Assembly: GCF_026339935.1 (NCBI RefSeq)
Contig: NZ_JAPEPX010000001.1
Span: 2,447,001 to 2,511,000 of the forward strand
Reading direction: 5' to 3'
DNA length: 64,000 bases
DNA from: Streptomyces sp. NBC_01551
GTDB lineage: Bacteria; Actinomycetota; Actinomycetes; Streptomycetales; Streptomycetaceae
The notes beneath the pieces are model-generated. The model did not search any database. It was not told the origin of the DNA and was given only the letters and a program-made list of their open reading frames with translations. Below, one piece after another: positions 6,122 to 51,797 of this stretch. The translations under genes were made by a program, and so were the position numbers. The stretch's first letter is position 1. Every line of letters starts with the position of its first letter.

Positions 6122-8674
6122 ATGTTCCGTACAGCCCTGCGCAACGTCCTCGCGCACAAGGCCCGGCTGCTGATGACGGTGCTCGCCGTCACCCTCGGCG
6201 TCGCCTTCGTCTCAGGCACCCTCGTCTTCACCGACACCCTCAAGAAGTCCCTCTCCGGCCAGTCCGCCAAGGACTACGCGGGCGTGGCCGTCTCCGTCAC
6301 CTCGTACGGCCAGGGCCGCAACGACCAGGGCGAGAAGGAGGGCGAGCCGGGCCTGAGCCAGGCCACCCTCGACAAGGTCAAGGCGCTCCCGGGCGTCGAC
6401 TCCGTCTCCGGACGCGTCACCGGCTTCGCCGGCGTCGGCGACGAGAACGGCAAGCTGATCGGCGCCGGCTGGTCCAACCAGGGCGCCAACTACACGCCCG
6501 TCAAGGACGGCAAGAACCCGCGCTACAGCTTCGTCCAGGGTGCCGGGCCGGCCAAGGCCGACGAGATCGCGCTCGACAAGGCGACCGCGGACACGGGCAA
6601 GTACAAGGTGGGCGACAAGGTCCGCGTCGCGACCAACGGCCCGGTCAAGGAGTACTCCCTCGCCGGTGTCTTCACCACCGAGGACGGTGCCGTCCAGGCC
6701 GGCGGCAGCCTGGTGCTCTTCGAGACCAAGGTCGCCCAGGAGCTCTACCTCAAGCCCGGCTACTTCCAGGAGATGTCGGTCGCGGCCAAGGACGGCACCT
6801 CCGCCGACAAGCTGCTGTCCGACATCGAGCCGCTGGTCGACAGCAAGCACACCAAGGCGCAGACGGGCGCGGCCCTCGCCGCGAAGCAGGCCAAGGACAT
6901 CGAGGAGGGCCTCGGCCAGATGGGCACCATGCTGCTCGTCTTCGCCGGCATCTCGCTCTTCGTCGGCATCTTCCTGATCTACAACACCTTCACCATGCTG
7001 GTCACCCAGCGCACCAAGGAGCTGGCCCTGCTGCGCGCCGTCGGCGCCAACCGCGGCCAGGTCATGCGCTCGGTGCTCGCCGAGGCCCTGGTCGTCGGCG
7101 CCGTGTCCGCCGTCGTCGGCCTGATCAGCGGCATCGGCCTGGCGGTCGCCATGCGCTCCGTGATCGGCTCCTTCGGCGCCAAGCTCCCGGGCGGCGACAT
7201 CGTGATCGCCCCGGGCACGATCATCGCGGCCCTGGTCATCGGCATCCTGGTCACCACGATCGCCGCGGTGCTGCCCGCCTGGCGCACCGGCCGGATCGCC
7301 CCGGTCGCCGCCATGGGCAGCGCCCACCTGCCGGCCACCGCGAAGTCGCTGGTCGTGCGCAACGTCATCGGCTCGATCATCAGCGTCCTCGGCATCGGCC
7401 TGGTCATGATGGGCGTGTCCACGGGCGGCGACACCGGCCGCATGACCATCGGCGCGGGCGCCTTCTTCATGCTCATCGGCATGATCGTGCTGCTGCCGCT
7501 GCTGTCCAAGCCGGTCATCGGGGCCGTCCGCCCGCTGCTGCAGAAGGTGTTCGGGATCCCCGGCAAGCTGGCCTCCCAGAACGCCGTCCGCAACCCGCGC
7601 CGCACCGCCGTCACCGCCGCCTCCCTGGCGATCGGCCTGACCCTGGTCACCACCCTGTCGGTGCTCGGCATCACCGTGGGCAAGGTCGTCGACCGGATGA
7701 GCACCGAGAAGCTCAAGGCCGACTACAAGGTCTCCATGGCCGGCGGCATGGGCTACCTCGACAAGTCGGTGGCCGAGACCCTCACCAAGACCCCCGGCAT
7801 CAAGGCGGTCTCCCCGCAGACGGCCGGCTACTTCATGGTCGGCGACGACTTCCGGTCCGCCTCCGGCGTCAACCCGGCCGCCATCGGCCAGCTGCTGAAC
7901 ATCGAGACCGTCAGCGGCTCGGTGGACTCCCTCGGCAAGGGCGAGATCCTGGTCGCCGAGAAGACCGCGAAGAGCCAGAAGCTCGCCGTCGGCTCCACGC
8001 TCAAGGTGAAGTACGAGGACGGCAAGCAGGAAACCCTCAAGGTCGGCGCGGTCTACAAGGACATGGAGGGCCTGCTCTCCCCCTACGTCCTCGACGACAA
8101 GATCCTCACCCAGCACACCGATGAGAGCGCCGTCTCCGAGGTGTACGTCAACGTCGAGGGCGGGGCGTCCAAGGCCGGCCAGCAGAAGGTCGTCGACGCC
8201 CTGGGCAAGAACCCGGCCATCAACGTCGCCACCCAGCAGGACATGCGCAACGAGATGGGCGGCATGATCAACACCATGCTGAACGTCATGTACGGCCTGC
8301 TCGGCATGGCGCTGATCATCTCGGTGCTCGGCGTGGTCAACACCCTTGCGATGTCCGTCTTCGAGCGGACCCAGGAGATCGGCATGCTGCGGGCGATCGG
8401 CCTCGACCGGGGCCGGGTTAAGAACATGATCCGCCTTGAGGCCGTGGTGATCTCGCTCTTCGGAGCGGCCCTGGGCGTCGCCATCGGCGTCTTCCTCGCC
8501 TGGGCGGTCGGCACCACCATGGCGAAGTCCATGCCGAACTACGAGCTGATCCTCCCGTGGGACCGGATCGGGATCTTCCTCCTGCTCGCCGCCGTGGTCG
8601 GCGTCCTGGCGGCCATGTGGCCCGCCCGCAGCGCCGCCCGCCTGAACATGCTGACGGCCATCAAGACCGAATAG
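6122..8674 (+). CDS. FtsX-like ABC transporter permease, double-repeat type
   Basis: An 850-residue membrane permease. One N-terminal helix (about 17-36) is followed by an extracytoplasmic MacB-type domain, then three helices with the FtsX signature (IYNTFTMLVTQRTKELALLRAVGA), a second set with NAVRNPRRTAVTAASLAIGL, another extracytoplasmic domain, and a C-terminal FtsX unit (NTLAMSVFERTQEIGMLRAIG). This duplicated layout is typical of actinobacterial permeases of the family. It forms an operon with the ATPase 55 bases upstream. MacB-type pumps act by mechanotransmission from the cytoplasm and export lipids, lipoproteins or antibiotics; no substrate can be named here. A strong terminator follows at 8706-8740. 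Confidence 0.93.
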   Translation: MFRTALRNVLAHKARLLMTVLAVTLGVAFVSGTLVFTDTLKKSLSGQSAKDYAGVAVSVTSYGQGRNDQGEKEGEPGLSQATLDKVKALPGVDSVSGRVTGFAGVGDENGKLIGAGWSNQGANYTPVKDGKNPRYSFVQGAGPAKADEIALDKATADTGKYKVGDKVRVATNGPVKEYSLAGVFTTEDGAVQAGGSLVLFETKVAQELYLKPGYFQEMSVAAKDGTSADKLLSDIEPLVDSKHTKAQTGAALAAKQAKDIEEGLGQMGTMLLVFAGISLFVGIFLIYNTFTMLVTQRTKELALLRAVGANRGQVMRSVLAEALVVGAVSAVVGLISGIGLAVAMRSVIGSFGAKLPGGDIVIAPGTIIAALVIGILVTTIAAVLPAWRTGRIAPVAAMGSAHLPATAKSLVVRNVIGSIISVLGIGLVMMGVSTGGDTGRMTIGAGAFFMLIGMIVLLPLLSKPVIGAVRPLLQKVFGIPGKLASQNAVRNPRRTAVTAASLAIGLTLVTTLSVLGITVGKVVDRMSTEKLKADYKVSMAGGMGYLDKSVAETLTKTPGIKAVSPQTAGYFMVGDDFRSASGVNPAAIGQLLNIETVSGSVDSLGKGEILVAEKTAKSQKLAVGSTLKVKYEDGKQETLKVGAVYKDMEGLLSPYVLDDKILTQHTDESAVSEVYVNVEGGASKAGQQKVVDALGKNPAINVATQQDMRNEMGGMINTMLNVMYGLLGMALIISVLGVVNTLAMSVFERTQEIGMLRAIGLDRGRVKNMIRLEAVVISLFGAALGVAIGVFLAWAVGTTMAKSMPNYELILPWDRIGIFLLLAAVVGVLAAMWPARSAARLNMLTAIKTE

Positions 8675-8705
8675 CGGGCCTGCGAGAGACACGGGCAGGG
8701 ACACG

Positions 8706-8740
8706 GAAGGGCCCCGGGGCAACACGCCCCGGGGCCCTTC
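8706..8740. terminator. bidirectional terminator hairpin
   Basis: Perfect 15-bp stem GAAGGGCCCCGGGGC / GCCCCGGGGCCCTTC with loop AACAC, between the convergent permease and cfa genes. Confidence 0.85.
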
Positions 8741-8763
8741 CCGTTGCCCGCAGCGCCCAGGCC

Positions 8764-10107
8764 CTACGGGGGCGGCGGCGCGCCCCAGGTGCGCAGCCGC
8801 AGCGGCAGCCCCGACCGGCCCGTCCCCGCGGGCCGCACCGCGAGGACCTGGTTGACGCCGAGCCGGTTGTGCTCGAAGCCGAGCGCGCTGGCCGCCATGT
8901 ACAGCAGCCACACCCGGGCCCGCCCGGGTGAGGTGAGCCGGACGGCCTCCTCCCAGTGCCGCTCCAGCCGGGCAACCCAGGCCCGCAGGGTGAGCGCGTA
9001 GTGCTCGCGCAGCGCCTCCACGTCGCGGACCTCGAAACCGGCCCGCTCCAGCTCGCCGACGGTGCTGCCGAGCGGCGAGAGCTCCCCGTCGGGGAACACG
9101 TAGGCGTCGATGAACTCGTCGACGCGGTACGCCGCTTCGTCGGCCTCCGGGGGCCGGGCGATCTGGTGGTTGAGCAGCCGTCCGCCGGGGCGCAGCAGGC
9201 CGTGCAGGGTGCGGGCGTACTCCCGGTAGCGGGCGGCTCCGACGTGTTCGGCCATGCCGATGGACGAAATGGCGTCGTACGGGCCGTCCTTGACGTCCCG
9301 GTAGTCCTGAACCCGGATGTCGACCAGGTCGGCCAGGCCCTCCTCGGCGGCTCTCTTGCGGGCGTACGCGGCCTGTTCGCGCGAGAGGGTGATGCCGGTG
9401 ACCTGGACGCCGTACGCGCGGGCGGCGTGCAGGGCCATGGAGCCCCAGCCGCAGCCGACGTCGAGGAGCCGCTGGCCGGGCTCCAGGGCGAGTTTGCGGC
9501 AGACCAGGTCGAGTTTGTCGCGCTGGGCGTCCTCAAGGGTGCCGCCGGGGCTCCAGTAGGCGCAGGAGTACACCATGGAGGGGCCCAGGAGCCGCTCGTA
9601 GAACTCGTTGCCCACGTCGTAGTGGTGACTGATCGCCTGGCGGTCGCGGCCCTTGCTGTGGCGGGTGCCGCCGCGCCGGTCGGCCTCCTCGGGCGGCGGC
9701 GCGGGCGCCGGCCACGGCCCGGCGAGCGTGAGCAGCTCCCGTACGGCGGCCCGCCGCGCCGGGTCGCGCAGCAGCGCGAGGCCCCCGGCCGGCCTCGGCG
9801 GGGCGGCGGCCGGGACCGGTGCGCCGTCGGGGTCCGGGCCGCGCTCCCACAGCAGGCCCGCCACCCGGTCCAGCAGGGCGAAAAGGTCGCCCTCCACGGT
9901 CATGTCACCCGCGACCCACGCGCGGGCCAGGCCCATCTCGCCCGGCTTCCACAGCACGCGGCGCAGCGCGCGGCGGCGGCGGACCACGAGAACGGGCCCG
10001 CCGGGTGGACCGGCCTCGCTGCCGTCCCAGGCCCGGATGCGCACGGGCAGGGGAGCGCCCAGCAGGGTCTCGGCAACAACGGCCAGCCGCGGCGCGGCGT
10101 CGGTCAT
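8764..10107 (-). CDS. cfa: cyclopropane-fatty-acyl-phospholipid synthase
   Basis: A 447-residue SAM-dependent methyltransferase that would add a methylene bridge to unsaturated acyl chains of membrane phospholipids. The SAM-binding motif LLDVGCGWGSMALHAA lies about residues 205-220, preceded by HYDVGNEFYERLLGPSMVYSCAYW, the stretch typical of CFA synthases (bicarbonate/active-site region), and followed by SSIGMAEHVG. The first 130 residues match the usual N-terminal lipid-binding part. The ATG at 10107 has GGAGG 8 bases before it; a GTG nine bases further upstream overlaps the Shine-Dalgarno sequence and is unlikely. It lies alone between two hairpins. Confidence 0.92.
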   Translation of the reverse strand: MTDAAPRLAVVAETLLGAPLPVRIRAWDGSEAGPPGGPVLVVRRRRALRRVLWKPGEMGLARAWVAGDMTVEGDLFALLDRVAGLLWERGPDPDGAPVPAAAPPRPAGGLALLRDPARRAAVRELLTLAGPWPAPAPPPEEADRRGGTRHSKGRDRQAISHHYDVGNEFYERLLGPSMVYSCAYWSPGGTLEDAQRDKLDLVCRKLALEPGQRLLDVGCGWGSMALHAARAYGVQVTGITLSREQAAYARKRAAEEGLADLVDIRVQDYRDVKDGPYDAISSIGMAEHVGAARYREYARTLHGLLRPGGRLLNHQIARPPEADEAAYRVDEFIDAYVFPDGELSPLGSTVGELERAGFEVRDVEALREHYALTLRAWVARLERHWEEAVRLTSPGRARVWLLYMAASALGFEHNRLGVNQVLAVRPAGTGRSGLPLRLRTWGAPPPP

Positions 10108-45356: not shown

Positions 45357-47909
45357 TCAGAGCAGCCCGTCCCACATCTGCTCCAGCAACACCGACCACC
45401 AGTTCTCCGGCGAAGCCAGCGCCGCGCTGTCCAGGCCCGCCAGATTCGCCTGGAAATCGACGGTCCACCGGCCCGCCTGCTCCGGCGTCAAATGCTGACG
45501 CAGCCGCCACATGTGACCCAGCATCGCCAGCGAACGCGCGAACTGCGGCAGGCTCGAATTCACGAACTGCGGCGCCGCCGGCGCACCACCGGGCCCGGCC
45601 TCCACCGGGACCGCCACTATGTGCGCCGTCCCGTACTGCACGCACAGCGCCTTGCCGAAGTCGCTGCCGACCACCAGGTACGAACCCGCGTCCGACGCCG
45701 CCTGCACCTGCCGCTGCGCGGCCAGCTCGGCCAGCGTCGGCACCGGCGCGCCCGGCACCGCCTGCGCCCAGAAGAACGGCCCGAAGTCCGTCGGCAGACC
45801 CGCCCACACCAGGGTCTGAGCCACGATGTCCGGCACGCCCTGGCGGGACACGGCCCGCTGCTCGAACCGGAACACGCCCTGCGGACCGAACGCCCCGACC
45901 AGCTCCTGGCCGATGGCCTCCAGCGGAATCGCCGGCTGCAACGGCACCTGAGGCAACGGGGCGCGCACCGGCGCGGGACGCGCCGGACCGTCCGCCACCT
46001 GGTGCAGCTCACCCTGGTGGGTGAGCAGGTGCCGCATGCCCTGCTGACGTCCCGCGTGGTCCTTGCCGTACGGGGCCACGCTGGTGATGCGGACCTGCGG
46101 CCAGGTCTCCCGGATCATCCGGGCGCAGTAACCGCCGGGCAGCTCACACGACTCCAGCTCGGTGTGCAGCTCCAGCACCTGCTGCGGCGGCACGTTCATG
46201 GCGCGCAGCTCGTAAAGGATCTGCCACTCCGGGTGCGGAGTACCGGGCGCCGAGCGGCGGATGAGCTGCTGCTCGGAACCGTCGGGCGCGCGGTAGCGCA
46301 GTACGGCCTGGTAGCCGGGGCCGACCGTGGGCGCCCCGGAGGGAGCCGCAGCGGGACCGGGACCCTGCGGCGCCGGACCGGGCGGCTGCGGAACGACACC
46401 GGGACCCGCCAGCATCGTCGCGGCGTGATGCGCCCCGCCACCGGGAGCCCCGGGCGCACCCGGCGCACCGGGAGGACCGGGCGGACCGGGAGGCTGCGGA
46501 ACGACACCGGGACCGGCCAGCATCGTCGCGGCATGATCCAGCCCACCACCGAGCGACCCGGGAGCCCCGGGAGGCCCCGGAGGCGTCGGCGCACCAGGCA
46601 CCCCGGGCGGACCGGGAGGCCCGGGCGGCGTCGGCGCGGCACCGGGCGCCCCCGGCGGACCGGGAGGACCGGGCCGCTGCACGACGGCCGGACCGGCCAG
46701 CATCGTCGCGGCATGATCGAGCCCACCGCCCAGCGACCCGGGAGCCCCGGGGGGCCCGGGCGGCCCAGGAGGCGTCGGCGCACCGGGCACCCCCGGCGGA
46801 CCGGGAGGACCGGGAGGACCGGGAGGCTGCGGAACGACACCGGGACCGGCCAGCATCGTCGCGGCATGATCCAGCCCGCCACCGAGCGACCCGGGAGCCC
46901 CAGGAGGCCCCGGAGGCGTCGGCGCACCGGGCGGACCCGGCGGCTGCGGTACGACACCCGGACCGGCCAGCATCGTCGCGGCATGGTCCACCCCGCCACC
47001 GGGCGGCGGCGTCGGCGGACCCGGCGGCGTCCGCGGCGCGGCCTGCGCGCCCGGCCGCTTCACCGTGGCCTTGCCCGTCGGCGCGTCGGCGATGTCCGAC
47101 GCCCCCGTCACCACGGCGGGCGCGATCGCGGTCGCCGGCAGCCCGCTGCCCCCCGCCATCAGGGTGGTCTTCGCCTCCGGGGCGACCCCGGACGACAGCA
47201 CGTCCTCCAGGTCCGACCCGGACAACGGCGGCGCGAACACCGTCGCCGGCAACGGTACGGACGCGTCGTCCGCACCGGAGTTCACATCGGTCCCGGCCCA
47301 CGGCGTGGCCCCGGCCGGAACCCCGTCGTTGGCGGTCGGCTCGTACGCCACCTCGCCGCCCCGCCGCAACGGCACGGGGTCGCCCGGAGCCGGAGCCGGA
47401 GAAGCCACGGGCGCGGCCACCGCGGCCGGCACGGGCTCCGCATCCACCGGAGCCGAAACAGCCTCCGCGGCAGAAGCGGCAGGCCCGGCGGGAGCAGCGG
47501 GCACAGCAGGCGCGGCAGGCGCGGCCACCGGCGGAATCCCCGCCCGGTCCGCCGCCTCCTGCAACCACGCCGGCGGGCTCAGCATGAACGAGGTCTGCTC
47601 CGCGTCGATCCGCGGCGTCGGCACCGAAGCCTCCGCCACCGGCGCGGCCGCGACCCCGTACTCCTCCTCGTACCGGCGGATCACCTCACCCACCGGCAGA
47701 CCCGGCCACAGCGTCGCCTCACCGCTGTCCCGCGCGATGACCAGCCGCTGCCGGCCACCCCCGGACACCGGACCCGCCGCACGGTCCTCCGCCCACACCA
47801 CGAACCCGAGCCCGAACTCCCGCACCCGCACCTCACGGTGCTGGTACGCGGGCACGTCCCCGTTGATCCACTCCTCGGCGCGCTCCTGCGCCTGCGCAAA
47901 CGTCACCAT
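45357..47909 (-). CDS. Imm35-like - PPG-repeat linker - nucleic acid deaminase-like - SUKH-4 multidomain protein
   Basis: An 850-residue protein without signal peptide or membrane helix. Residues 1-85 look like a YrhB/Imm35 immunity domain ([31 protein letters not shown]). Residues 130-300 are Ala/Pro-rich; residues 305-505 are a collagen-like PPG linker with five HAATMLAGP boxes. Residues 520-620 fit a polymorphic-toxin deaminase: H559-P-E561 and C588-ELPGGY-C595 are the candidate zinc ligands and catalytic Glu. Residues 640-850 match a SUKH-4 immunity domain ([28 protein letters not shown]). Toxin-like and two immunity-like domains thus share one chain. Start ATG 47909, GGAGGGG upstream, 7 bases after the stop of the WHH/SUKH gene: one operon. 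Confidence 0.8.
46380..47010. repeat. tandem repeats encoding PPG and HAATMLAGP units
   Basis: In-frame DNA repeats within 45357..47909. Five units encode a [11 protein letters not shown] box, each followed by Gly-Pro-Pro triplets of variable number (with APTPPGPPG spacers). The units are close enough at the DNA level that slippage or recombination could change their number between strains. Confidence 0.8.
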
Positions 47910-47916
47910 CGCGCCA

Positions 47917-48930
47917 TCACCCCTCCACCTGCGCGGAACCCGCCGCCGCGGCCGTACCGGCCACGGGAACCGAGCGCGCGAATCCGCCGTCCACCATCAG
48001 ACCGGCCACCGTCTCCAGCTCCGGCGGGTTCCCCGCCAACCGCTCAAGAAAGGCGTCGAAATCGGCACCGCACGGCAGCAACAGACGCTCCACGCGCTCC
48101 TGCACCGACCAGCCGTCCCGGTCGCGCGCGTCGTCGTACGGGGAGAACCACACCGAGCCGAGACCCTCGCCCTTGACCTTCACCGCGAGCAGCCCGCCCT
48201 GCACGAAGGCCACGCACAGGTAATCCTTCGTCAGATGGTCCCGCAGACACTTGTTGACGTAGACCAGGTCGTTGACCGCGGCCTCCTCGCGCACCGTGAA
48301 GAACGGCTGGTCCACGAGCAGACCCAGCTCCACGTCCAGCCCCGCGCCCACCGGCGCACAGCCGCCCGCGGCCTTCAGGAACGCCCGGTACGCCTCCGGC
48401 AGCCGGTACCCGAGGTCCTCCTCGACGCCCTGCACCTGCTGCTCCGACACCGACACCACCGACTTCGGCAGCCCCAGGTGCACCGGACGCAACTCCTGCA
48501 ACGGCCGCGTCCCGCGCTTCTCGTGGTCCGCCGGCGCCGTCGCCAGCCCCGCGTGATGACGGAGCAGCGCCTTCACCTCGACCGGCACCAGTTCCATACG
48601 GCGAGAACCGGCCACGTGGTGCCACGTCCAGCCGTGCGGGGTCGCCACCGGACCGACCGTGTCCCACAACGCGTGCCCGGCGGCCTGCATCGCCGCGTTC
48701 GCCGACACGTAGTCCGTGAGCCGCAACTCGTCCACGCCGAAACCCTCCGGCGGCTCGGCGATGTCCACCGCGGCGCGCGCGTACGGCGCGAAGTCCGGAT
48801 GGCCCTCACCGTCCATCCGCACACCGTGGGGATGCCGAGCGGCCCGGACCGGGTCCGGGAAATGCACGACCTGCCCCGAGTAAGCGGCGTTGGGTGGCGC
48901 GGCCTGCTGCCCGAGCCGACCTGTCGTCAT
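47917..48930 (-). CDS. WHH-type HNH nuclease-like domain fused to SUKH-1 (SMI1/KNR4) domain
   Basis: A 337-residue protein without signal peptide. Residues 45-130 contain the WHH signature: TPHGWTWHH (Trp103-His104-His105), then MELVPVEV (112-119) and HH at 125-126, as in the WHH nucleases of the HNH/EndoVII group used as toxin tips. Residues 155-300 read as a SUKH-1 domain ([20 protein letters not shown] and [15 protein letters not shown]). In most toxin loci nuclease and SUKH immunity are separate genes; here they are joined. The ATG at 48930 has AGGGGG 9 bases upstream. First gene of an operon with the deaminase/SUKH-4 gene; divergent from the YwqJ-type gene. Confidence 0.78.
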
Positions 48931-49046
48931 GGCGGTAGCCCCCTGCTGGATCTGGCTGGTTCACCACAGCCTATGTGGTCCGGCAAGAGCCTCACCCGCC
49001 CGCGACCCGCCCACACGCACCAGGGCCGGGAACATCCGAATTGATA

Positions 49047-49056
49047 CGAATATTCG
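49047..49056. promoter_or_regulatory. palindrome in the divergent toxin-immunity promoter region
   Basis: CGAATATTCG, a perfect 10-bp palindrome in an AT-richer patch midway in the 227-base space between the two divergent transcription units. A plus-strand TTGACA stands at 49084-49089 without a matching -10. It may be an operator; nothing else supports this. Confidence 0.3.
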
Positions 49057-49157
49057 ACCCCGCTTCCACACGGCAGAGGACATTTGACAGGCTGTCCCCG
49101 CGGCACGGGGGCGTGCGCGACAGCGGCCACCACCGCAGCCACGGGAGGGAAACGACC

Positions 49158-49781
49158 ATGCACAACACGGCGACACGTACGGACCCGACACCCGCCGACG
49201 ACGACAACACCGCGGCCACGGCGGCCGGACACAACCCCGCCGCCCCCGCCACGGGCGCCACGGACACATCGGGCCCCACCAGCACCACGGGCCCCACCGG
49301 CGACCCCCGGCTGCGCTGGAGCGCCACCGACGGCCCCACCGTCCCCGTGCTCCGCTTCCGCCGCGACGGCATCCTCCCCACCGTCGCCGCCGCCCTCTCC
49401 GTACGCGGCGAAACCCTCACCAGCACCGCCGGCAAGGCCGACCAGCCACCCGCCCTGCACCCCCTCGTCCAGGACTTCCTCGACACCCTCACCAGCGGCC
49501 AGCGGGAACGCTTCACCGGCCGCTGCCCCGAAGCCATCCTCGTCTCCCGCCACCTCACCGCGGTCGAAGGCGCCCGCAGCAAACGCGCCTCCCGCAAACC
49601 CCTCACCGCGAGCGAAGCCCGCCGCTCGCTCAAGCAGGCCAAGATCACCGCCCGCCGCATCCGCGAGGACGGCGACCCCCTCCACGGCAGCTACGCACCC
49701 CCCTGCCGCTCCTGCGACGCCCTCCTCTCCCACTTCGGCGTCCGCTCCATCGACCTCACGCCCGCCCCCCAGAAGGCCTGA
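49158..49781 (+). CDS. YwqJ-type nucleic acid deaminase-like protein
   Basis: A 207-residue protein. The first 60 residues are Thr/Ala/Pro-rich and probably disordered, without a secretion signal. The rest carries the YwqJ deaminase pattern: GRCPEAILVSRHL (Cys123-x-Glu125) and PPCRSCDALLSHFG (Cys183-x2-Cys186), three zinc-ligand cysteines and the proton-shuttling glutamate. YwqJ-like domains are predicted deaminases of nucleic acid bases in polymorphic toxins. All key residues are kept, so it may be active. The ATG at 49158 has GGGAGGG 8 bases upstream. A SUKH-3 gene follows after 11 bases, the expected immunity partner. Confidence 0.82.
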   Translation: MHNTATRTDPTPADDDNTAATAAGHNPAAPATGATDTSGPTSTTGPTGDPRLRWSATDGPTVPVLRFRRDGILPTVAAALSVRGETLTSTAGKADQPPALHPLVQDFLDTLTSGQRERFTGRCPEAILVSRHLTAVEGARSKRASRKPLTASEARRSLKQAKITARRIREDGDPLHGSYAPPCRSCDALLSHFGVRSIDLTPAPQKA

Positions 49782-49792
49782 CCGCACCCACC

Positions 49793-50305
49793 ATGAGCGC
49801 CACCTCATCCGCGTCCTACGACCGCTCCTCGGCCACCCGCTTCCCGGCCGCCGTGGACTCCGCGCTGCGCACCGCCGGCTGGGAACCCGGCCGCTGGGAC
49901 ATCAAGCAGGCCGAATACTGGGCCGACGCCCTGCGCGACCACACCACCCCCGCCGGGCACCGGCACACCGTCTTCCCCGCCGCCGTCGAGGCCTGGGCCG
50001 AATTCGGCGGCCTCCACATCACCGCGCCCGGCCCCGGCCGCCAGATAGCCCCCACCCCGGTCCACCTCGACCCCCTCACGGGCCTCTACCTCGCCCGCAC
50101 CTTCGCCGACCTCGGCCGCGCCCTGTCCACCGAACTCTGCCCCCTCGGCGTCGACGCCGACGCCGGCTCCCACCTCGCCATCGACTGCGAGGGCCGCGTC
50201 TACGGCATCGACCACACCGGCGACTGGTTCCTGGGCCCCGCGGTAGACGAAGCCCTGACCCTCCTCCTCACAGGCCTCCAACCCACCCGCCTCACCACGC
50301 ACTAA
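49793..50305 (+). CDS. SUKH-3 family immunity-like protein
   Basis: A 170-residue cytoplasmic protein that fits the SUKH-3 family: FPAAVDSALRTAGWEPGRWD at the start, AAVEAWAEFGGLHI in the middle, and IDCEGRVYGIDHTGDWFLG near the end. SUKH proteins neutralise nuclease and deaminase toxins. The gene follows the YwqJ-type deaminase by 11 bases on the same strand, so it is the likely antidote. The ATG at 49793 lacks a strong Shine-Dalgarno sequence, so reinitiation from the deaminase gene is possible. Convergent with the histidine kinase gene. Confidence 0.85.
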   Translation: MSATSSASYDRSSATRFPAAVDSALRTAGWEPGRWDIKQAEYWADALRDHTTPAGHRHTVFPAAVEAWAEFGGLHITAPGPGRQIAPTPVHLDPLTGLYLARTFADLGRALSTELCPLGVDADAGSHLAIDCEGRVYGIDHTGDWFLGPAVDEALTLLLTGLQPTRLTTH

Positions 50306-50397: not shown

Positions 50398-51666
50398 TCA
50401 GGGCTGGGCGCACGGGAGGACCGCCGAGACCCGGAAGCCGCCCTCGTCCGTCGGGCCGGACACGAAAACGCCGCCCAGGCCGAGCACCCGCTCACGCATG
50501 CCGACCAAGCCGTTCCCGCCGCTCGGCAGACCCGGCTCCGCCGCCTTCCCGTCACACGGCCCGTTCTCCACCTGCATCGCCACCTCCCCCTCCCGATGCG
50601 CCAGCCGTACGACGACCCGCGCACCCGGCGCGTGCTTGTGGCAGTTGGTCAACGCCTCCTGCACCACCCGGTACGCCGTCTGCTCCACCTCCGGCGGATA
50701 CCCGTCCCCCGAAGCCACCCCACCCCGTACGTCCAGCTCCACGGCCATGCCCGCCGCCCGGGACTGCCCCACCAGCGCATCCAGCTCCGCCAGCGACGGC
50801 CCGTCCTCGAAACTCCCCGCCAGCGCCACCGCCGCCACCGCGACCACCGCCGGCTTCGGCGACTCCGCCCGCAGCACCCCGAGCATCTCCCGCAACTCCG
50901 TCAACGCCTGACGGCCCATGTCCCCGACCAACGCCGCGTTCCGCGCCGCCTTCACCGGATCCTTCGCCGCCACCGCCTGCAACGCCGCCGCGTGCACCAC
51001 CATCAGCGACACCCGGTGCGCCACCACGTCGTGCATCTCCCGCGCGATCCGCGTCCGCTCCTCCGTACGCGCCCACTCGGCCCGCTCCTCCGCCCGGTCC
51101 GCCAGCAGCGACAGCTCCCGCTCCAACGAGTCCGCCCGCTCCTGCAAGCTCTCCATCAGCCGCCGCCGCGCCCCGATGTACAGCCCGAACAGCACCGGCG
51201 GCACGGACAGCGCCACCGCCACGAAGACGGACAGCGAGATCACGAGCGTGTGCTCGTCCGCCGCGCCCTCGCGGGTCCGCAGGTACATCACCACGAACGT
51301 CGCGACCATCGACATCGACGTCAGCGTGGCCGTGATCCGCCGGGGCACCTCGGAGGAGGCCAGCGTGTACAGCCCGACCACCGACAGCAAGAACCCCATC
51401 GCCGCCGGCGACACCGCGATCCCGACGAGCACCACGGCGATCGGCCAGCGCCGCCGCAGCACCAGCACGGCCCCGACCACGATCCCGAACAGCGCCCCCA
51501 AGACGACCGGCACCCCGGCCTCGCGGGCGAACGCCACCCCCTCGAAGGCGCACTCGACGGCGGACACCGCGCCGAGCCCGACATCCAGAACGGCCTCCCG
51601 CGGCCGCTCCCACCACCAGGGCCCATCCCGCCCGGCCCCGCCCCGCTCTTCCCCCGTAATGGTCAT
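50398..51666 (-). CDS. sensor histidine kinase, NarL/DesK type (HisKA_3)
   Basis: A 422-residue membrane sensor. Four to five hydrophobic helices lie in residues 35-165 (VPVVLGALFGIVVGAVLVL, WPIAVVLVGIAVSPAAMGFLL and others), then a coiled coil, the HisKA_3 box RTRIAREMHDVVAHRVSLMV with the phospho-accepting His, and an ATPase domain (QEALTNCHKHAPGA, N box; GNGLVGMRERV, G box). All residues for autophosphorylation appear intact. The ATG at 51666 (MTITGEERGG) is chosen; the frame goes on 31 codons upstream. No response regulator gene is adjacent on either side, which is unusual for this class. Confidence 0.9.
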   Translation of the reverse strand: MTITGEERGGAGRDGPWWWERPREAVLDVGLGAVSAVECAFEGVAFAREAGVPVVLGALFGIVVGAVLVLRRRWPIAVVLVGIAVSPAAMGFLLSVVGLYTLASSEVPRRITATLTSMSMVATFVVMYLRTREGAADEHTLVISLSVFVAVALSVPPVLFGLYIGARRRLMESLQERADSLERELSLLADRAEERAEWARTEERTRIAREMHDVVAHRVSLMVVHAAALQAVAAKDPVKAARNAALVGDMGRQALTELREMLGVLRAESPKPAVVAVAAVALAGSFEDGPSLAELDALVGQSRAAGMAVELDVRGGVASGDGYPPEVEQTAYRVVQEALTNCHKHAPGARVVVRLAHREGEVAMQVENGPCDGKAAEPGLPSGGNGLVGMRERVLGLGGVFVSGPTDEGGFRVSAVLPCAQP

Positions 51667-51797
51667 GCCGTCCAGCCTACGCAGGGGCCCCAGCACAGAG
51701 CCCGGGGAAATTCCCGCAAACCCCGGGTAATCGCACATACGACTGAATCGTCCGCTCACCGAGACCTGAATCCCGCATTCCAGACGACATTGGCGAC

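What the first reader, a model, noticed from the sequence alone, without database searches (positions are those of the whole stretch)
45357..50305. Four-gene divergent locus of deaminase- and nuclease-like domains with SUKH/Imm35 immunity domains
Three predicted nucleic-acid-modifying domains (WHH nuclease-like, one deaminase with H-x-E/C-x6-C, one YwqJ deaminase with C-x-E/C-x2-C) are placed in one divergent locus, each fused to or next to a SUKH-1, SUKH-4 or SUKH-3 domain, plus an Imm35-like domain. None has a signal peptide, TM helix, or a WXG/LXG/RHS trunk that would export it. Domain families are known from polymorphic toxin work; that they form an intracellular, self-restrained system (defence, abortive response or development) is inference.
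Basis: partly seen in the sequence, partly recalled or inferred. Interest (0 to 1): 0.88.

Follow-up and report, generated by a model that had tools for sequence, protein, structure and literature searches.

The report
Domesticated toxin–immunity locus of Streptomyces
Four neighbouring Streptomyces genes carry two deaminase-like and one nuclease-like toxin domain, each paired with a matching antidote domain, and unlike the usual fast-changing bacterial weapons they are kept with intact active-site motifs in the same place across most of the family, which suggests toxins turned into a standing internal cell function.

Summary
Four ORFs at 45357-50305 encode: A, an N-terminal domain, long variable linker, XOO_2897 deaminase and SUKH-4; B, WHH/HNH nuclease and SUKH-1; C, YwqJ deaminase; D, SUKH-3. 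These domains pass Pfam cut-offs; the Imm35 label for A's N-terminus is not established.

The main result goes beyond the finding: this is not a sporadic polymorphic-toxin cassette. A-type matches occur in 147 of 150 family genomes (4 weak) and B-type in 97 of 101 (3 distant); outside the genus under 2% of class genomes sampled have any match. Gene order is fixed in the nearest relatives. Active-site motifs are kept (A 205/205 rows, B 88/88, C 82/82). A's deaminase and B's nuclease evolve as slowly as nearby GlmU or slower; C somewhat faster. Gene trees largely follow GlmU.

Relatives look like conflict systems: a WXG100-type toxin array in one genus, and accessory operons of an NTPase with a mostly dead deaminase-SUKH-4 protein.

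Best reading: a domesticated, cytoplasmic toxin-immunity locus, its enzymes restrained by SUKH in cis (A, B) and in trans (C/D).

The parts
45357..47909 (-). Gene A, 850 aa: N-terminal domain, variable Pro/Gly-rich linker, XOO_2897-type deaminase, SUKH-4
   Evidence: matches in 147/150 family genomes, 4 of them weak and 2 partial
47640..47909 (-). A residues 1-90: N-terminal domain of immunity type by context (Imm35-like at most). Relatives also occur standalone downstream of two compact A relatives and fused behind SUKH-3 in genus g5
46335..47633 (-). A residues 93-525: linker of variable length with several recurring Thr motifs (T-x-[LMFIV]-[ALVSM], e.g. [24 protein letters not shown])
   Evidence: 80 linkers of 279-715 aa, mean 7.4 motifs against 0.86 after shuffling (motif class chosen after looking); AATMLA-P coding pattern only here in the genome, 5 hits; tandem repeats 46374-46966
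46020..46322 (-). A residues 530-630: deaminase domain, proposed catalytic set H559, E561, C588, C595
   Evidence: Pfam PF14440 E 6.7e-37; residues kept in 204/205 aligned rows (197 distinct sequences), the last row L121 read by eye as a separate piece; dN/dS 0.092
45378..45908 (-). A residues 668-844: SUKH-4 immunity domain
   Evidence: PF14435 E 5.6e-47
47917..48930 (-). Gene B, 337 aa: WHH/HNH nuclease fused to SUKH-1; ends 7 nt before A starts
   Evidence: matches in 97/101 family genomes, 3 of them distant; upstream of A on the same strand in 67/67 named and 19/19 family loci with enough flank
48535..48816 (-). B residues 39-132: colicin-DNase/WHH nuclease region with W103 H104 H105 and H125 H126
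   Evidence: 88/88 sequences keep all five residues
48043..48450 (-). B residues 161-296: SUKH-1 (SMI1/KNR4)
48931..49157 (.). Divergent intergenic region between B and C; the block nearest B (about 48931-48985) is the best conserved
   Evidence: 75 of 83 sequences aligned
49158..49781 (+). Gene C, 207 aa: YwqJ deaminase, C123-P-E125 and C183-x2-C186
   Evidence: four residues kept in 82/82; one further sequence, L133, dropped by a length filter, keeps them too
49793..50305 (+). Gene D, 170 aa: SUKH-3, proposed partner of C
   Evidence: C and D seen next to each other in 13 of 14 chosen family genomes including g2 and g5; D not seen within the short flank of the other, L174
44328..45221 (-). 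Gene F, 297 aa coiled-coil/DivIVA-like protein following A on the same strand
   Evidence: PF05103 25.7 bits, just below cut-off 28; follows A in 72/75 named and 18/20 family loci
50398..51759 (-). Histidine kinase convergent with D
   Evidence: HisKA_3 E 2.4e-17; present in 60/60 named loci with enough flank

Best explanation
The locus is a set of former polymorphic-toxin cassettes that became a fixed, largely vertically inherited, cytoplasmic function of the Streptomyces family. Two operons diverge: B-A(-F) and C-D. A and B each carry a toxin domain with intact active-site motifs followed by a SUKH immunity domain in one chain, so the enzyme is held in check in cis; C is held by the separate SUKH-3 protein D. 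A's long linker displays several copies of a recurring Thr motif and probably docks A on one or more partners (the adjacent coiled-coil protein F or a phospho-Thr reader are candidates). A signal then loosens the SUKH grip, and the deaminases and nuclease act on the cell's own nucleic acids or nucleotides. Shown: domains, gene order, family-wide presence, invariant motif residues, purifying selection, largely vertical inheritance. Inferred: cytoplasmic location, operons, inhibition by SUKH, enzymatic activity, docking, trigger, self-targeting.
For: Presence: A in 147/150 (4 weak) and B in 97/101 (3 distant) genomes of the family; A 40/40, B 28/28, C 28/28 of the genus, against 5/354, 4/268 and 4/268 elsewhere in the class. 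Synteny in the named nearest relatives: B 67/67 and kinase 60/60, divergent C-D 60/60. Motif residues invariant (A 205/205 rows, B 88/88, C 82/82), whereas 8 of 9 compact relatives aligned have lost two or three of A's four. dN/dS 0.092 for the A deaminase and 0.164 for the B nuclease against 0.191 for GlmU. 17-24 supported splits shared with the GlmU tree, at most 2 under permutation. No recognised export signal. SUKH is a known partner of YwqJ, XOO2897 and WHH toxins and is sometimes fused to toxins (PMC3482391, passages). A homologous WHH-SUKH-1 / YwqJ / SUKH-3 array sits behind a WXG100-type toxin in genus g5, pointing to origin.
Against: No activity, inhibition or phenotype was tested. 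No fold model, so whether SUKH covers the active site is unknown. E561 stays in all nine compact relatives, eight of which lost other motif residues, so at least that residue can be kept for another reason. 7-12 supported splits per gene conflict with GlmU, so some exchange is possible. C's domain (dN/dS 0.245) is less constrained than GlmU. Of 19 diverse family loci with enough flank only 12 have C-D within 1 kb of B; L121, L122 and L124 have neither C nor D in the stretch and in L120 D lies 2.5 kb from C, so C-D need not work with A-B. In 9 of 87 loci the reading frame breaks within A, from assembly error or real loss. Three g2 genomes lack A and B and do without them.
Confidence: 0.55

Rival explanations
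1. Non-enzymatic scaffold, decoy or poly-immunity locus: the toxin-like domains are kept as binding modules or metal-stabilised folds, and the SUKH domains protect the cell against toxins of kin.
For: SUKH domains are common in poly-immunity proteins (PMC3482391 passages). Inactive effector copies acting as decoys are discussed for other conflict systems (PMC7159879 passages). Eight of nine compact relatives of A keep the architecture with a degenerate deaminase. E561 is kept in all nine.
Against: The motif residues are invariant in the core genes counted (205/205, 88/88, 82/82). The toxin domains evolve as slowly as or more slowly than their SUKH partners (0.092 v 0.227, 0.164 v 0.163, 0.245 v 0.318), not what a pure immunity role would predict.
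Confidence: 0.2
2. Ordinary interbacterial effectors delivered by a type VII or contractile injection system without a recognisable trafficking domain, with SUKH as self-immunity.
For: All toxin families come from polymorphic toxins (PMC3482391 passages). In genus g5 homologous cassettes follow a 2301-aa protein with WXG100 and papain-fold domains and a C-terminal WHH domain. A contractile injection system is reported as required for developmental cell death in S. coelicolor (PMC10020575, title and start of abstract in a listing).
Against: No trafficking domain, repeats of the usual kinds or hydrophobic signal found. An antidote fused to the toxin in the same chain would travel with it. Near-universal, single-site, slow evolution instead of the diversity that defines these systems.
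Confidence: 0.13
3. Antiphage or abortive-infection module: infection frees the enzymes from SUKH and kills or mutates the infected compartment.
For: Effector plus built-in inhibitor is a common defence logic (established knowledge). Compact relatives of A sit behind a P-loop NTPase gene in 6 of 10 fetched loci, reminiscent of NTPase-coupled conflict systems.
Against: No PADLOC match for A-D, nor for the four NTPases scanned. Defence genes are usually patchy and mobile (established knowledge); this locus is core and syntenic.
Confidence: 0.12

Closest known systems
Polymorphic toxin systems with SUKH immunity (Zhang et al. 2012, PMC3482391; passages seen)
   Same: Same toxin families (XOO2897, YwqJ, Tox-WHH) and same immunity superfamily; fusions of SUKH to toxins noted there
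   Different: No recognised trafficking module, no patchy diversity; fixed core locus with purifying selection on the toxin domains
Cassette array of genus g5 (L166, L167)
   Same: WHH-SUKH-1 fusion, YwqJ and SUKH-3 next to each other; SUKH-3 fused to an A-type N-terminal domain
   Different: Lies behind a giant toxin ending in WHH; B relatives only 37-40% identical; separate from that genus's own C-D orthologue
Compact NTPase + N-domain-deaminase-SUKH-4 operons (L161, L162, L168-L171)
   Same: Same three A domains at 35-41% identity where aligned, no export domain found on the A-type protein
   Different: No long linker, accessory, coupled to a P-loop NTPase; deaminase motif residues partly lost in four of the five scored (L170 intact, L171 not scored)
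Toxin-antitoxin modules
   Same: Enzyme with adjacent presumed inhibitor
   Different: Inhibitor fused in A and B; no evidence of antitoxin instability or autoregulation

Membership tests
Polymorphic toxin system | Toxin domain of a known polymorphic-toxin family | tested here: met
Polymorphic toxin system | N-terminal trafficking or repeat region (WXG/LXG, RHS, filamentous, signal peptide) | tested here: not met
   Pfam; hydropathy (no dedicated signal-peptide predictor run)
Polymorphic toxin system | Linked immunity gene | tested here: met
   SUKH-4, SUKH-1, SUKH-3
Polymorphic toxin system | Patchy, rapidly diversifying distribution | tested here: not met
XOO_2897-like deaminase (PF14440) | Profile match above cut-off with metal ligands and catalytic Glu | tested here: met
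   (126 bits, cut-off 27); H559/E561/C588/C595; motif roles assigned by analogy to the deaminase fold, recalled
YwqJ deaminase (PF14431) | Profile match, C-x-E and C-x2-C | tested here: met
WHH/HNH nuclease (PF14414) | WHH motif and downstream His | tested here: met
   weak sequence match to solved Rhs toxins 8bd1, 8h8a
SUKH superfamily | Profile match above cut-off | tested here: met
SUKH superfamily | Inhibits the neighbouring toxin | not testable with these tools
   needs expression or binding test
Imm35 (PF15567) | Profile match above cut-off | tested here: not met
Imm35 (PF15567) | Distant homology by profile-profile comparison | tested here: inconclusive
   hhalign E 0.004-0.011, probability 3.5-3.7%, against E 0.09-0.83 for four controls; E 0.062 against 0.09-0.78 for eight controls
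Known antiphage system | PADLOC model match | tested here: not met
Deaminase and SUKH folds | Predicted three-dimensional fold | not tested
   jobs interrupted, tool switched off

The most novel reading that the evidence does not exclude
A whole bacterial family keeps, as a core function, three active nucleic-acid-modifying toxin enzymes on a leash in its own cytoplasm and releases them in a programmed way to edit or cleave its own DNA, RNA or nucleotide pool, for example during hyphal development or sporulation. That would be a domesticated self-editing system, comparable in logic to eukaryotic deaminases that are thought to have been recruited from bacterial toxins (recalled; title of Iyer et al. 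2011 seen in a reference list).
Probability: 0.2. Interest if true: 0.92.

Novelty: new variant of a known kind. Interest (0 to 1): 0.68.

Why it matters
Toxin domains of this sort are normally seen as fast-evolving weapons. A family-wide, single-site locus with invariant active-site motifs, two of whose three toxin domains evolve as slowly as or more slowly than a nearby cell-wall precursor enzyme (GlmU), says that these proteins do something the producer itself needs. It makes a testable case of toxin domestication in genetically tractable, multicellular bacteria, and offers deaminases of the XOO_2897 and YwqJ families with their presumed natural inhibitors.

Tried and rejected
Rejected: (a) 'sporadic mobile toxin cassette': contradicted. 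(b) H582-T-E584 as the catalytic HxE of A: varies in 32 of 204 scored rows; H559-P-E561 is invariant. (c) A fusion of the compact relative with a large N-terminal part in L171: the extension was an out-of-frame artefact overlapping the NTPase gene. (d) Imm35 by Pfam: not found. (e) NCBIfam and PADLOC: no matches for A-D; PADLOC none for four NTPases (L161, L168, L169, L170), the L171 ORF and the L162 compact protein. (f) Solved structures by sequence: A1 profile and C nothing, D one irrelevant hit at E 0.095, B weak Rhs-toxin hits. (g) Regulatory sites in the divergent region: a simple pattern look-up gave nothing convincing. (h) Damage of C in L133, suspected: the domain piece is stop-free with both motifs and a short internal gap. 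(i) Literature: locus tags SCO3114-SCO3119, SUKH with deaminase and Streptomyces (13), SUKH-4 with Streptomyces (17), YwqJ with Streptomyces (18), domesticated polymorphic toxins (59, 15 of 28 listed), XOO_2897 (60), SUKH/KNR4 with Streptomyces (77, 25 of 651 listed), contractile injection with cell death (78). No listed title or abstract describes this locus; passages were seen only in PMC3482391, PMC2680258, PMC9739842, PMC13170358 (SCO3119 as a possible AtrA target) and PMC7159879. Two key earlier papers (PMC3239186, PMC3113570) are not held, so earlier mention cannot be excluded.
Full report
What is there. B ends 7 nt before A on the minus strand, C ends 11 nt before D on the plus strand, and the two pairs diverge from a 227-nt region. 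Pfam places XOO_2897-type deaminase and SUKH-4 in A, WHH/colicin-DNase and SUKH-1 in B, YwqJ deaminase in C and SUKH-3 in D, all above curated cut-offs. NCBIfam and PADLOC give nothing for these four. No segment looks like a membrane helix. Beyond the locus are a coiled-coil, DivIVA-like gene F after A, and a histidine kinase after D. mfd, glmU, prs, an L25-family ribosomal protein gene, pth, ppc and enolase genes lie further out in the window, so the locus sits in housekeeping surroundings. By gene order F and the kinase should be SCO3114 and SCO3119 of S. coelicolor; this equivalence is recalled and inferred, no call matched the S. coelicolor sequence. SCO3114 is a rod-domain protein whose mCherry fusion is diffuse (PMC2680258, passages) and SCO3119 is listed as an orphan kinase (PMC9739842, table passage).

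Distribution. A's deaminase plus SUKH-4 had a match in 147 of 150 genomes of the family; the three misses are genus g2, four matches (genus g5) are weak, and G084 and G074 are partial. B had a match in 97 of 101; the misses are the three g2 and one g5 genome, three g5 matches are 37-40% relatives, and a few genomes have the match in pieces. In the class, A is in 40 of 40 genomes of the genus and 5 of 354 others, four at 34-38% identity and one very weak. B is in 28 of 28 and 4 of 268, C in 28 of 28 and 4 of 268. In these class searches only up to 5, 7 or 10 first-look candidates per genome were scored, so weak relatives can be missed. C was found in 14 of 14 chosen family genomes including g2 and g5. 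The C-P-E/C-x2-C motif is intact in 13 of them; the exception is G074, whose reading frame is broken and whose completeness is 76%. So C-D is probably the older part and A-B came later or was lost in g2 and g5 (inference).

Synteny. A scan of the named genome collection (84,980 species) gave 420 relatives, of which the tool kept the best 80, 79 of them titled Streptomyces. These are therefore the nearest ones. In those with enough flank, B is upstream of A in 67 of 67, the kinase is present in 60 of 60 and F follows A in 72 of 75. The C-D figure (67 of 67) counted loci partly because D was seen; recounted by flank alone it is 60 of 60, 58 of them with C within 1 kb of B. In 20 loci chosen for diversity: B 19 of 19 and F 18 of 20, divergent C-D 15 of 19, 12 of them within 1 kb of B; none had enough flank for the kinase test. 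Of the four that fail, L120 has C beside B but D about 2.5 kb from C; in L121, L122 and L124 (G084, G140, G025) C lies about 5, 5 and 27 kb from B in the same chromosome.

Selection. Over 56 sequences with all genes needed (window included) the mean pairwise identity is 0.916 for the A deaminase, 0.855 and 0.850 for the two halves of B, 0.831 for C's domain and 0.866 for GlmU; A's linker has 0.589. The lowest A-deaminase pair (0.729) is below the lowest GlmU pair (0.770). Median dN/dS over 842 of 861 pairs of 42 loci (838 pairs for SUKH-3, 841 for the kinase): A deaminase 0.092, A N-domain 0.152, SUKH-1 0.163, WHH 0.164, GlmU 0.191, SUKH-4 0.227, YwqJ 0.245, SUKH-3 0.318, kinase 0.341, linker 0.432, F 0.553. 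Motif residues: B 88 of 88, C 82 of 82; one C sequence, L133, had been dropped by a length filter and keeps both motifs. For A, 204 of 205 aligned rows, and the remaining one, L121, shows H-P-E and both Cys when its deaminase piece is read in its own frame. The 205 rows hold 197 distinct sequences and some genomes are there twice. By contrast, in nine compact relatives aligned to A only one (L170) keeps all four residues, the other eight have lost two or three; E561 is kept in all nine. Trees of A, B, C and D share 24 of 42, 19 of 39, 18 of 34 and 17 of 34 supported splits with GlmU, with 10, 12, 7 and 9 in conflict; permuted labels share at most 2. Inheritance is thus mainly vertical, not free of exchange.

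The linker of A. It runs from 279 to 715 residues in 80 sequences and is collagen-like in composition in the window (weak Pfam Collagen match below cut-off). Dropped before this count: six loci whose A ORF was too short because the frame breaks, and two frame-broken rows, L047 and L122. It holds on average 7.4 copies of T-x-[LMFIV]-[ALVSM] against 0.86 after shuffling, and in 77 of 80 rows no shuffle of 200 reached the observed number. The motif class was chosen after looking at the sequences, so the test is not blind; repeats inside one linker also raise the number. The exact AATMLA-P coding pattern occurs 5 times in the 7.05 Mb genome, all in this gene. A docking role, and disorder of the linker, are inference.

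Relatives and origin. Genus g5 has, in L166 and L167, a giant protein ending in a WHH domain (2301 aa in L166, with WXG100 and papain-fold domains by Pfam; the L167 copy runs off its contig), then SUKH-1, a WHH-SUKH-1 fusion, YwqJ, and SUKH-3 fused to an A-type N-domain (Pfam on the L166 proteins). Ancestors of B, C and D in a polymorphic-toxin array are therefore plausible. Nine compact A relatives (L160-L165, L168-L170) consist of N-domain, deaminase and SUKH-4 without linker; L171, a tenth, was first misread as a large fusion and is compact too. In six of the ten (L161, L162, L168, L169, L170, L171) a conserved P-loop NTPase gene lies directly upstream; L160 and L163-L165 gave no hit, nor did the window or the 100 core loci searched within their flanks. 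Its Pfam AAA_16 matches are all below the cut-off.

Mechanism. The fusion order toxin-SUKH in A and B and the C-D pairing suggest inhibition in cis and in trans. That these proteins act inside the producer follows from absence of recognised export features and from the core distribution; it is not shown. The strongest argument for catalysis is that the motif residues never vary in the core genes counted while they decay in compact relatives. The strongest argument for caution is that no structure or assay was available, and that E561 persists in degenerate relatives.

Novelty. The families and toxin-SUKH fusions are in print (PMC3482391, passages). The searches, two of them with capped lists, showed no title or abstract that describes this locus as a conserved core feature; two relevant 2011 papers could not be read. 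I file it as a new variant of a known kind: polymorphic-toxin-derived, but failing two defining features of that kind (trafficking module, variability).

Noticed in passing
L161:3226-6906, L162:3532-7213, L168:3346-7066, L169:5820-9439, L170:5934-9071, L171 about 6276-9442: Accessory two- or three-gene operons: P-loop NTPase of about 600-770 aa plus compact N-domain / (mostly degenerate) deaminase / SUKH-4 protein, in two cases (L162, L168) with a standalone N-domain gene after it. No PADLOC match for the members scanned. Could be an undescribed conflict system.
   Followed up: partly
L166:200-9809 and L167:1-6179: Genus g5 toxin array: giant protein with C-terminal WHH (WXG100 and papain-fold domains in the 2301-aa L166 copy), SUKH-1, WHH-SUKH-1, YwqJ, SUKH-3 plus N-domain; a possible picture of the ancestral state.
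   Followed up: partly
L012, L014, L050, L066, L117, L119, L047, L122 (between N-domain and deaminase of A); L121 (after the deaminase): Reading frame of A breaks in 9 of 87 loci, in 8 of them in the repetitive linker; two of these stretches hold N. Assembly error or slippage in repeats not distinguished.
   Followed up: partly
A residues 582-584 in relatives (window about 46158-46166): The H-T-E beside the catalytic Cys has Y for H in 18, D for E in 13 and Q for E in 1 of 204 scored rows, the changed rows lying mostly in genus g14; a possible substrate-specificity position.
   Followed up: partly
window 49084-49100: Short near-palindrome (GACAG-G-CTGTC) in the C-side of the divergent region, partly conserved; possible regulator site.
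   Followed up: no
L133:9469-10008: C of this genome has a short internal gap and a stop upstream of the domain in the matched stretch; both motifs are kept, so it is probably intact with another start.
   Followed up: partly
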